64,000 bases of DNA, taken from Lanius collurio. Taxonomy: Eukaryota > Chordata > Aves > Passeriformes > Laniidae. This document shows, one piece after another, positions 52,200 through 54,507 of the stretch. The notes beneath the pieces are model-generated. The model was given only the letters and a program-made list of their open reading frames with translations, searched no databases and was not told where the DNA came from. The stretch is from the NCBI GenBank assembly GCA_020086605.1, contig JACBWW010000096.1, forward strand, positions 186,001 to 250,000, written 5' to 3'. Each line of letters opens with the position of its first letter. Position 1 is the first letter of the stretch. The translations under genes and the position numbers were made by a program.

Positions 52200-52254
52200 T
52201 GTGGAGGTGGATCCTTGTCCCTGTCCCCAGGTCACGTGTGCCCCATATCTGTTG

Positions 52255-52262
52255 CTGATTGG
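52255..52262 (+). promoter_or_regulatory. Y-box / inverted CCAAT motif in U3
   Basis: CTGATTGG is the classic Y-box core and includes ATTGG, the reverse of CCAAT. Y-box proteins were first isolated on this motif, although NF-Y is the usual occupant of such sites. It is preserved in the 3' LTR (54319-54326). It is notable because the element itself encodes a Y-box-family protein. Confidence 0.6.
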
Positions 52263-52283
52263 GTGGTTTGGGTGCCTGGAGCT

Positions 52284-52292
52284 GGGGCGGGG
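52284..52292 (+). promoter_or_regulatory. GC box (Sp1-type) in U3
   Basis: GGGGCGGGG, identical in the 3' LTR. It lies about 20 bp downstream of the CCAAT motif and 50 bp upstream of AATAAA, a sensible promoter position for a TATA-less LTR. Confidence 0.5.
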
Positions 52293-52342
52293 GGAGAAGG
52301 TCAGAGGAGTCTGCTCGGGAACTCCGGCAACGCGGCTGGAGA

Positions 52343-52348
52343 AATAAA
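52343..52348 (+). promoter_or_regulatory. LTR polyadenylation signal
   Basis: AATAAA, conserved in the 3' LTR at 54407-54412. The 3' copy would end the proviral transcript, with R and U5 following. Confidence 0.7.
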
Positions 52349-52445
52349 ATCATCCTTGAATATCTACAAAAATACTGCTTCATCTGTCCTTCCAACCCCA
52401 TCGTCGTCATATATATTGTTGCAAGATTCCCCTCACTGCAACAAA

Positions 52446-52463
52446 TGGTGGAGAATGCGGGCA
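52446..52463 (+). promoter_or_regulatory. Primer binding site, tRNA-Ala
   Basis: TGGTGGAGAATGCGGGCA begins two bases after the LTR. Its complement, TGCCCGCATTCTCCACCA, equals the 3' end plus CCA of a vertebrate tRNA-Ala(AGC) isodecoder as I recall it, 18 of 18 bases. Minus-strand DNA synthesis would be primed here. Confidence 0.8.
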
Positions 52464-52532
52464 AACAATCCCTTGAGAAGATAATTCGTGAGTAACTCTG
52501 GATATTTCTTCCTACTTTAGTTTTGATGAACG
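52464..52532 (+). other. 5' leader with donor-like GTGAGT
   Basis: The 69-bp untranslated leader contains GTGAGT at 52488-52493, a good donor where retroviruses usually have their major splice donor. TTTCTTCCTACTTTAG, ending at 52520, resembles an acceptor but is too close for an intron. An ATG at 52526 in weak context opens a 21-codon upstream frame overlapping the main start. Confidence 0.4.
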
Positions 52533-54047
52533 ATGGAGGATTCATGGAAGGACTCATGGCTGTCCGAACCACAAAGAGACATTTATCTTAAGCTAAAAAA
52601 GGTTCTGGAACAGCAATATGTAGACTTTAGCTTGATTCAAGCTCAGAAAGAGCTAAAACACTTTTTGGTATGGCTGTTTAAAAACTTCTTCTATGTTTCT
52701 TGGGATTTGATTCTTACCAAGGACTTTTGGAAGAATGTTTGGACACAGTTAATTTCTGAATCAAAAAATATTCCGATGCAGGACTATTTCCGTGAATATT
52801 ACCTGATTACAGAGGCTGTTGAGCAATATCGGCTTTGTCCTGCTGCTGTATCAGCAGCGAACACGTGGCTGAGCAGCCCACGCGTTGCAAGGGGCTCCTC
52901 CGCCATCATGGGGACCGCGCGGCCCCGGCCGAGACCGCCCAGTGAGTTGCGGGCGGCGGCGAGAAAGCTCCCGTGCGTGGGAGAGCCAGTGAGGCCAGGC
53001 ACGGCGGGAGACGGGGCGGCGGCGAGAGAAGAGGTGGCGGGAGTGGAGCCAGGAGCAGCGCGGCAGCGCGGGCCCGGCGGTGTTCGCCCTGAGGCAGCGG
53101 CGAGGGCGGTGGCGGCCGAGGCGCGTTCCGGCGATGGCCGCCCCGCGCCGTGTGGTGAGCGACGGTTCGAGGCCGCGCCTCACACCGATAAGGGCGGCGG
53201 CGATTGTGTTAGTCGCTATGGCGACCGTGGTGAAACACACCGAGCAGAGCCAAAGGAGTGTGGGGGCGCGAAGGGAACCGAGCTAGCCCATGGTCACACA
53301 GCCGACCACAGCAGTGGCGGTGCCGGCGGTACAAAGCCGCGCACACGTGAATGCCTCACAGGGCGCGGCCGTGCAGCCGCGCAAATGCCCGGACAGCGTG
53401 GAACAGTCACGCGAAACTCCAGAGGGGGAGCGAGCATGGCACCAAATGCGGCTCCGCCCCACACACAATCCCGAAGGGTCGAGACCCCAAGACAGAAACG
53501 CACGGGCGGCCCCGGCCCCGGCAGTCCCGGCTGCAGCAGCTCCGACGTGAGAAGAAGTGAAAGCAAGAAGAAAAGAACTCGAAAAAATGCAAAGGTTATT
53601 GCAACTAGGGTATTTGGAACTGTAAAGTGGTATAATGTAAAGAAAAATTACGGTTTCTTGTTGAAAGATGATACTGGAGAAAATATTTTTGTTCATAAAT
53701 CTGCTATTGCAAGAAAGAACCCCAAAAGTGATGTTCCAAGCTTAAAAGAAGGAGAAAGAGTAGAATTAAAAATTGTTCAAGGAAGGAAAGGCCCACAAGC
53801 TGCATGTGTTACAGGTCCTGAGGGTGCCCCTGTGAAAGGTAGTAGATATGCTGGACAATATCCCCATAATCCCTGTTCTTTCCCCTATCACACTTTTCCC
53901 TTTTATCCCATGTCCCTTTATCCCCCTTATATGCCCAGCCCAAATCTCCCTTTCTGGCTTCCCTCACAAAACCAGTCTTTTCCATTTGCCATTAATCCCT
54001 TTGCAATGCCGATGAGGGGGATGAAAAGGAGGGAGGGAAGAAATTAA
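52533..54047 (+). CDS. Gag-matrix / Y-box cold-shock-domain fusion protein, 504 aa
   Basis: The start ATG has A at -3 and G at +4. Residues 1-100 are helical, with the LKHFLVWLFKNFF and DFWKNVWTQL pattern of a betaretroviral Gag matrix, but position 2 is Glu, so the usual myristoylated Gly is absent. Residues 100-343 are Arg/Gly/Ala/Pro-rich and coded by very GC-rich DNA. KKKRTRK (345-351) could be a nuclear signal. Residues 354-440 form a complete Y-box cold-shock domain, from KVIAT to GSRYA. Against human YBX1 recalled from memory it aligns without gaps over 87 residues, with about 55% identity by hand count. The four RNA-contacting residues of YB-1 (Trp65, Phe74, Phe85, His87) are all kept, as W366, F375, F386 and H388. 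The RNP1 segment reads KNYGFL, with Asn where Y-box proteins usually have Gly. Residues 444-493 hold 14 Pro and 12 aromatics. The expected role is RNA or single-stranded DNA binding. The host-like part is intronless, implying capture from spliced RNA. The matrix assignment is less certain than the cold-shock domain. Confidence 0.85.
   Translation: MEDSWKDSWLSEPQRDIYLKLKKVLEQQYVDFSLIQAQKELKHFLVWLFKNFFYVSWDLILTKDFWKNVWTQLISESKNIPMQDYFREYYLITEAVEQYRLCPAAVSAANTWLSSPRVARGSSAIMGTARPRPRPPSELRAAARKLPCVGEPVRPGTAGDGAAAREEVAGVEPGAARQRGPGGVRPEAAARAVAAEARSGDGRPAPCGERRFEAAPHTDKGGGDCVSRYGDRGETHRAEPKECGGAKGTELAHGHTADHSSGGAGGTKPRTRECLTGRGRAAAQMPGQRGTVTRNSRGGASMAPNAAPPHTQSRRVETPRQKRTGGPGPGSPGCSSSDVRRSESKKKRTRKNAKVIATRVFGTVKWYNVKKNYGFLLKDDTGENIFVHKSAIARKNPKSDVPSLKEGERVELKIVQGRKGPQAACVTGPEGAPVKGSRYAGQYPHNPCSFPYHTFPFYPMSLYPPYMPSPNLPFWLPSQNQSFPFAINPFAMPMRGMKRREGRN
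52850..53570 (+). other. CpG-island-like segment inside the proviral gene
   Basis: The sequence switches abruptly from AT-rich gag to very GC-rich, CpG-dense DNA and back to AT-rich code at the cold-shock domain. Frames are open in several registers because stops are rare. Two places look like host first exons: an ATG in good context at 52908 followed about 35 bases later by GTGAGT, and GGCGATGGCC (ATG at 53134) followed by GTGGTGAGC. This might be host CpG-island sequence captured along with the gene, or expanded low-complexity coding sequence. Confidence 0.55.
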
Positions 54048-54249
54048 CCATCATTTTCTAAGATTCCAACAAGTACAAAAGGGAAAATCCCTTCCTCAGT
54101 TTCCATCTGAAGTGTGCTCATGTCCTGTCTCCCTTCTGGTACTTCAAGGAAAATCTGTTTGGACATTTAAAGATTCAAGACAGTGGCTGCCTTTCCTTTG
54201 AAATTGTTCTGTTGTTTATCCAACTATTTCCCCTGTTATTTTATTTAAT
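54048..54249 (+). other. Proviral 3' non-coding region
   Basis: About 200 bp between the stop codon and the purine-rich stretch, without an open frame. It could be the captured gene's 3' UTR or env/pol remnants; no such similarity is visible. Confidence 0.5.
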
Positions 54250-54263
54250 AAGAAAGGATGAAT
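54250..54263 (+). promoter_or_regulatory. Probable polypurine tract
   Basis: AAGAAAGGATGAAT lies directly before the 3' LTR, where plus-strand priming takes place. It is purine-rich but broken by T, weaker than a typical tract. Confidence 0.5.
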
Positions 54264-54507
54264 TGTGGAGGTGGATCCTTGTCCCTGTCCCCAGGTCACA
54301 TGTGCCCCATATCTGTTGCTGATTGGGTGGTTTGGGTGCCTGGAGCTGGGGCGGGGGGAGAAGGTCAGAGGAGTCTGCTCGGGAACTCCGACCATGAGGT
54401 TGGAGAAATAAAATCATCCTTGAACATCTACAAAAATACTGCTTCATCTGTCCATCCAACTCCATCGTCGTCATATATATTGTTGCAAGATTCCCCTCAC
54501 TGCAACA
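54264..54507 (+). repeat. 3' LTR, 244 bp
   Basis: The same length and ends as the 5' LTR, with 235 of 244 identical positions. Five of the nine differences cluster in 10 bp (54391-54400) just upstream of AATAAA. The E-box of the 5' copy is CACATG here, consistent with CpG decay. Confidence 0.95.
54407..54412 (+). terminator. Proviral poly(A) signal in the 3' LTR
   Basis: AATAAA in the 3' LTR, expected to direct 3'-end formation of the element's transcript. Confidence 0.65.

What the first reader, a model, noticed from the sequence alone, without database searches (positions are those of the whole stretch)
52200..54507. Endogenous retrovirus that has captured a Y-box cold-shock gene
Seen: paired 244-bp LTRs, primer binding site, near-perfect target duplication and a single intact 504-codon frame joining a Gag-matrix-like N-terminus to a complete Y-box cold-shock domain. 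Established: transducing retroviruses carry host genes fused to gag in exactly this layout, and Y-box proteins (YBX1/2/3) package mRNA. Inference: this is a non-autonomous element propagating a host-derived RNA-binding protein. I do not know of a described endogenous retrovirus with this cargo.
Basis: partly seen in the sequence, partly recalled or inferred. Interest (0 to 1): 0.92.

Follow-up and report, generated by a model that had tools for sequence, protein, structure and literature searches.

The report
Retroelement fused to Y-box cold-shock domain
A 2.3-kb retrovirus-like jumping element, with relatives matched at 150 scored places in this (likely songbird) genome, carries one gene that joins a predicted retroviral matrix domain to a Y-box cold-shock domain, likely taken from a host gene, and would use it to help package its own RNA.

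The parts
52194..52199 (.). 5' target duplication GCCCTT
   Evidence: GCCCTT / GCCGTT, one mismatch; 23 of 26 loci with both LTRs have perfect 6-bp duplications
52200..52443 (+). 5' LTR, TGTGG...CAACA
   Evidence: 244 bp, 96.3% identical to the 3' LTR
52343..52348 (+). AATAAA polyadenylation signal in the LTR (3' LTR copy 54407-54412)
   Evidence: read; function inferred
52446..52463 (+). primer-binding site for tRNA-Ala(AGC)
   Evidence: 18 of 18 bases complementary to the 3' end (with CCA) of a tRNA-Ala(AGC) gene of the same genome
52533..54047 (+). single long open frame, 504 codons: matrix domain - linker - CSD - tail
   Evidence: 12 of the 30 loci fetched by CSD keep a 498-508-codon frame; 16 of 150 scored genome rows have a stop-free frame of 498 or more, L023 (assembly gap) and L020 (one stop) left out
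52533..52844 (+). N-terminal domain (residues 1-104), predicted retroviral Gag matrix fold
52848..53588 (+). GC-rich, basic, less constrained linker
   Evidence: GC 0.70 and CpG o/e 1.03 (52851-53568), pI 11.0 (residues 106-345); pN/pS 0.72
53589..53858 (+). Y-box cold-shock domain (residues 353-442)
   Evidence: W366, F375, F386 and H388 invariant in 12 of 12 intact frames, pN/pS 0.26
53859..54044 (+). aromatic/proline-rich tail (FPFYP motif) also seen in corvid proteins and P0010
54250..54262 (+). weak purine-rich tract before the 3' LTR (polypurine-tract candidate)
   Evidence: read; not tested
54264..54507 (+). 3' LTR
54508..54513 (.). 3' target duplication GCCGTT

Best explanation
This is an LTR retroelement that encodes no pol and is likely non-autonomous and recently active, whose one protein joins a predicted retroviral matrix domain to a Y-box cold-shock domain likely captured from a host gene and would bind the element's own RNA and carry it into the particles of an unidentified helper retrovirus. 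Shown: LTR-PBS-frame-LTR anatomy, complementarity to tRNA-Ala(AGC), target duplications at many loci, identical LTR pairs in two copies, one insertion with an exact empty site, a lower pN/pS in matrix and CSD than in the linker, matrix and CSD linked in all loci fetched by a matrix piece, and the same layout in crow and jay proteins with exchanged modules. Predicted: the matrix fold. Inferred: one old capture of a Y-box gene; supply of reverse transcriptase and integrase in trans; that the matrix domain brings the protein to helper Gag or membranes; and that the CSD does the RNA-binding job that nucleocapsid does in a normal Gag.
For: Family: CSD query 150 of 150 scored (1,339 first-look candidates); matrix query 150 of 150 scored (1,282 candidates). 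Anatomy: 26 of 30 loci have both LTRs, lengths 2,279-2,328 bp, 23 of 26 perfect duplications; LTR pairs identical in L002 and L015, and without substitution but one base different in length in L005. Empty site: C19 has a single GTTCAG where C18 has it on both sides of L003, flanks 98-99% identical. Priming: 18/18 match to tRNA-Ala(AGC), and a mini-copy (L078) with 29 nt of tRNA-Ala complement. Matrix. CSD; four surface residues (role recalled) invariant in 12 of 12. Selection: matrix 0.237 (bootstrap 0.118-0.509), CSD 0.259 (0.120-0.559), linker 0.722 (0.542-0.958). Linkage: 30 of 30 class-1 matrix loci and 10 of 10 class-2 matrix loci carry a CSD downstream. [quoted passage not shown]
Confidence: 0.55

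Rival explanations
1. The protein works as a germline mRNP coat, not a packaging adaptor: the CSD would mask and stabilise element RNA (as germline Y-box proteins do for stored mRNA, recalled), and the matrix domain only localises it.
For: The closest solved match of the less diverged crow CSD is YBX2 (147.7 bits against 142.5 for YBX1); YBX2/contrin is described as germ-cell specific (start of abstract of PMC2361212, listing). No capsid domain is present.
Against: The matrix domain shows as low a pN/pS as the CSD, which suggests an active assembly or membrane role. The paralogue of origin is unresolved on the tree.
Confidence: 0.25
2. The frame is selected because it interferes with related retroviruses (a Gag-fragment restriction factor of Fv1 or enJS56A1 type, recalled), with the element mobilised in trans regardless of its own protein.
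For: Gag pieces can act as dominant negatives (recalled); 16 of 150 scored copies keep a full stop-free frame.
Against: Restriction by a Gag fragment needs no CSD, yet 40 of 40 loci fetched by a matrix piece carry one; selection across dispersed, mobile copies points to a benefit in cis for the element (inference).
Confidence: 0.1
3. Passenger cargo: the fusion spread by chance on a well-mobilised LTR and the protein has no function.
For: 134 of 150 scored rows show no full stop-free frame (one of them an assembly gap); the linker is nearly unconstrained (pN/pS 0.72).
Against: pN/pS 0.24-0.26 in matrix and CSD; layout kept in crow proteins with 75-80% identical matrix domains.
Confidence: 0.08
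4. The CSD is an independent YBX retrocopy inserted by a LINE into an ordinary provirus.
For: None found.
Against: One frame with the matrix domain and no poly(A) tail or second duplication seen in the window copy; linkage in 30 of 30 and 10 of 10 matrix-fetched loci; same layout in corvids.
Confidence: 0.01

Closest known systems
Transducing avian retroviruses with gag-oncogene fusions (e.g. CT10 Gag-Crk, viral library entry P05433)
   Same: Host-type domain fused in frame behind a Gag N-terminus; the entry is the top row of the viral structure library for the matrix model, at a weak E-value of 0.28
   Different: Those are exogenous isolates with signalling cargo (recalled); this is a germline family with an RNA-binding cargo that looks constrained
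Crocodilian ERVs that captured KIT-ligand and nectin3 (PMC4299795, abstract and passages)
   Same: Endogenous, captured host mRNA, purifying selection reported on the captured frame
   Different: There the host protein is an added frame or replaces env; here it is fused to a matrix domain in a 2.3-kb element without pol. The nectin3 lineage is described from six insertions in A. mississippiensis; here 150 of 150 scored matches
Gag-only or non-autonomous LTR elements (plant TR-GAG, rodent VL30/ETn; recalled)
   Same: Short, LTR-bounded, at most one frame, mobilised in trans
   Different: None known to me carries a cold-shock domain
MMTV Gag with host YB-1 (PMC4486188, passages)
   Same: Betaretroviral Gag, viral RNA and a Y-box protein act together
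   Different: There YB-1 is a separate host protein; here a Y-box domain is encoded by the element and fused to matrix
YBX1/YBX2/YBX3 Y-box proteins
   Same: Complete CSD with the conserved aromatic/His surface
   Different: No basic/acidic repeat C-terminal domain but an aromatic-proline tail; CSD 51-58% identical to the ones compared, the 58 being to unnamed P0005

Membership tests
LTR retroelement / endogenous retrovirus | Paired LTRs beginning TG and ending CA | tested here: met
LTR retroelement / endogenous retrovirus | Short target duplication, differing between loci | tested here: met
   23 of 26 perfect 6-bp, window 5 of 6, two none in register; L018/L019 and L004/L029 share a hexamer
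LTR retroelement / endogenous retrovirus | tRNA primer-binding site next to the 5' LTR | tested here: met
   18/18 to tRNA-Ala(AGC)
LTR retroelement / endogenous retrovirus | Gag matrix domain | tested here: inconclusive
LTR retroelement / endogenous retrovirus | Own pro-pol (autonomous) | tested here: not met
   the next longest forward frame wholly between the LTRs has 86 codons; Pfam scan of the 504-codon frame gives only CSD above cut-off; shorter frames were not scanned
LTR retroelement / endogenous retrovirus | Capsid and zinc-knuckle nucleocapsid in Gag | tested here: not met
   no such Pfam match in the frame at E up to 1
Y-box protein (YBX1/2/3) | Y-box type CSD | tested here: met
Y-box protein (YBX1/2/3) | Alternating basic/acidic C-terminal domain | tested here: not met
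   F/Y/P-rich 62-residue tail
Y-box protein (YBX1/2/3) | Assignment to one paralogue | tested here: inconclusive
   favours YBX2 slightly (for crow P0002); one search puts the retroelement CSDs outside the cellular clade
Retrovirus with captured host gene | A cellular source gene in the same lineage | tested here: inconclusive
   P0010 (unnamed source) has CSD plus a similar tail without the matrix domain; its search in this genome did not complete
Retrovirus with captured host gene | Cargo RNA binding and packaging shown | not testable with these tools
   needs bench work

The most novel reading that the evidence does not exclude
A retroviral Gag lineage in which a captured Y-box cold-shock domain has replaced nucleocapsid as the genome-binding module (with capsid and pol lost), giving an old, diversified and recently mobile family of songbird elements that recombine matrix and RNA-binding modules and encode their own packaging adaptor.
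Probability: 0.4. Interest if true: 0.9.

Novelty: new variant of a known kind. Interest (0 to 1): 0.8.

Why it matters
The host genes best known from retroviruses are growth factors, kinases and surface proteins (recalled, and PMC4299795). Here the cargo is a general RNA-binding domain, fused to matrix and apparently kept by selection in a family of many copies. If the inferred role is right, it is a natural case of a retroelement that swapped its RNA-packaging domain for a host one. It would help to test why MMTV-type Gag works with YB-1, and it offers a likely polymorphic insertion family for study in songbird germlines.

Tried and rejected
LINE-made YBX retrocopy inside a provirus: rejected.

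Giant 1,893-codon frame at L023: an assembly gap read through as N; left out of counts. L020 (508 codons listed with one stop) also left out.

First structure model of the N-terminus, with four sequences: pLDDT 54.7 and no useful match; only the six-sequence model is used.

Pfam search of the matrix piece: nothing. tRNA and Rfam scans of the window: nothing.

CATC-motif packaging idea: not significant; not used as support.

YBX2 as the exact donor: favoured by pairwise score, not by the tree; left open.

Autonomous partner: of 8 PBS sites fetched because absent from the top lists, 4 were CSD elements and 4 mini-insertions; 30 of 30 class-1 and 10 of 10 class-2 matrix loci carry a CSD. Not found. 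The genome-wide LTR count, the P0010 and newt YBX2 searches and the second empty-site test (L011) did not complete by the server.

Literature: 10 searches showed no description of a retroelement with a cold-shock domain among the rows listed. Several searches held more papers than were listed (e.g. 1,845 held and 15 listed). Three papers were opened for passages; the rest were seen as listings only.
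Full report
OBSERVATION. The element runs 52200-54507: LTRs of 244 bp, 96.3% identical, beginning TGTGG and ending CAACA; flanks GCCCTT and GCCGTT (5 of 6). The leader begins with a primer-binding site at 52446-52463. A recalled tRNA-Ala 3'-end pattern has 6 exact sites in the genome, control 0; ARAGORN calls tRNA-Ala(AGC) genes in the three fetched loci, and the window matches such a gene plus CCA at 18 of 18 bases. One long frame, 504 codons, fills 52533-54047; the next longest forward frame wholly between the LTRs has 86. Pfam finds the cold-shock domain (E 2.3e-19) and nothing else above cut-off. 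By sequence the closest solved structures are the Y-box CSDs of YBX1 and YBX2.

FAMILY. The CSD query against the window's own genome (1.097 Gb, 2,132 contigs) gave 1,339 first-look candidates, of which 150 were scored; 150 of 150 match, at 80-100% identity, and 16 of 150 lie in stop-free frames of 498 codons or more (L023, an assembly gap, and L020, with one stop, are left out). The class-1 matrix piece gives 150 of 150 scored of 1,282 candidates. The scored lists are capped. They also include duplicated sequence, since C18/C19 and C45/C46 look like paired haplotypes and C900 holds one copy twice. Of 30 loci fetched by CSD (window copy included), 26 have both LTRs; 23 of these 26 have perfect 6-bp target duplications, the window 5 of 6, and L014 and L025 none in register; elements are 2,279-2,328 bp. 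L002 and L015 have identical LTR pairs; L005 has no substitution but a one-base length difference. With a recalled songbird neutral rate of 2-3.5 substitutions per billion years per site, the window copy is several million years old and those three are recent.

LINKAGE. Loci fetched by CSD cannot show whether copies lacking it exist. The unbiased test is by the other end: 30 of 30 loci fetched by the class-1 matrix piece have a CSD downstream (many are the same elements as before, and L052 shows only the part that fits the fetched stretch).

EMPTY SITE. The 3' flank of L003 (contig C18) matches C19 at 99%. C19 lacks the element: the flanks meet there with a single GTTCAG, which stands on both sides of the element in C18. 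Both contigs are 20.6 Mb and share other copies at matching places, so I read them as two haplotypes (inference). The insertion would then be polymorphic.

COLD-SHOCK DOMAIN. W366, F375, F386 and H388 (the Y-box nucleic-acid surface, role recalled) are invariant in 12 of 12 intact frames. The window CSD is 51-58% identical to the Y-box CSDs compared; the least diverged corvid ones reach 68-73% to human YBX1/YBX2 chains. A tree of 22 rows puts the eight cellular CSDs in one clade (99/97) and the retroelement CSDs outside, the main own-genome group on a long branch. This fits one old capture but neither proves it nor names the paralogue.

SELECTION. Over 12 intact frames (66 pairs), uncorrected pN/pS is 0.237 in the matrix, 0.259 in the CSD, 0.722 in the linker and 0.593 in the tail; bootstrap ranges over codons are 0.118-0.509, 0.120-0.559, 0.542-0.958 and 0.262-1.706. 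The matrix range lies below the linker's; the CSD range overlaps it slightly. Pairs are not independent, and only intact frames were used. The linker is 70% GC with CpG o/e 1.03, against GC 0.35-0.39 in the flanks.

RELATIVES AND MODULES. UniRef holds crow (Corvus moneduloides) proteins of the same layout (one cluster of 24 members) and one from Florida scrub jay (Aphelocoma coerulescens). There are two matrix classes, 31-38% identical to each other, and several CSD groups. Crow P0002 has a class-1 matrix (89% to P0001) but a jay-type CSD (88%): a mosaic. In this genome a class-2 query gives 150 of 150 scored of 1,025 candidates. I fetched 10 of those 150, chosen by frame length or rank and not at random: 10 of 10 carry a CSD about 1.1-1.25 kb downstream, 8 of 10 an LTR after it, and L081 has a CSD closest to the jay's (65%; 46% to the window's). 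P0010, from an unnamed source, has the CSD and a similar FPFYP tail without the matrix domain and may resemble the donor (inference). That the host is a songbird is inferred from these relatives; the species was not identified.

PRIMING FOSSILS. An exact LTR-end/PBS pattern occurs 144 times, its reversed control 0. Of 8 such sites fetched because absent from the top lists, 4 hold CSD elements and 4 hold only one full LTR, the PBS and a short stretch. A further one, L078, is LTR plus 29 nt of tRNA-Ala complement plus the LTR's last bases, with GTCCCT on both sides; L071 shows a 39-nt tRNA-like stretch (four mismatches) with CATCTG on both sides. These look like integrated abortive reverse-transcription products and would support tRNA-Ala priming.

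MECHANISM. The element lacks pol, so it must be moved in trans (inference). Both folded domains look kept while the linker drifts, in many dispersed copies; that suggests the protein helps the RNA that encodes it. The simplest reading is an adaptor: the CSD binds element RNA, the matrix domain brings it to membranes or helper Gag. [quoted passage not shown] the original report, Bann 2014, was not read). No helper, expression or binding data exist here.

LITERATURE. The listings showed no retroelement with a cold-shock domain. The closest precedent is capture of KIT-ligand and nectin3 by crocodilian ERVs (PMC4299795, abstract and passages). A cordon-bleu/zebra finch LTR paper (PMC6523648, passages) has no word beginning 'cold' in its main text. 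The library lacks most subscription journals, and repeat databases could hold the LTR under a name that I could not check.

It replaced a biased linkage claim (loci fetched by CSD) by the 30 of 30 count, and 'three identical LTR pairs' by two.

Noticed in passing
L078 (G000:C9:19459500-19461300) and L071 (G000:C3:14858700-14859700): Mini-insertions made of one LTR plus 29 nt (exact) or 39 nt (ungapped, four mismatches) of tRNA-Ala complement and the LTR's last bases, with 6-bp target duplications GTCCCT and CATCTG: likely integrated abortive reverse-transcription products.
   Followed up: partly
L069, L070, L072 (G000 C1:18.48 Mb, C3:4.48 Mb, C2:32.05 Mb): Single older LTRs (about 300 bp, with extra sequence near the start) followed by PBS and 39-73 nt of leader-like sequence, then unrelated DNA; L069 has TCCAAG on both sides, L072 no duplication found.
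   Followed up: partly
window 52851-53568: The linker is CpG-island-like (GC 0.70, CpG o/e 1.03), unlike the coding parts on either side of it; it may be captured 5' exon sequence or a region unmethylated in the germline.
   Followed up: no
G000 contigs C18 and C19, also C45 and C46: Look like paired haplotypes kept in the assembly, so presence/absence of insertions can be scored within one genome.
   Followed up: partly
P0010 (344 aa, source 'lgn'): Y-box CSD with an FPFYP tail like the element's but no matrix domain; possible relative of the donor gene or another retroelement.
   Followed up: partly
G000 C3:25.196-25.275 Mb: Five of the six exact tRNA-Ala 3'-end sites lie here, in both orientations; the three fetched loci hold tRNA-Ala(AGC) genes.
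   Followed up: no
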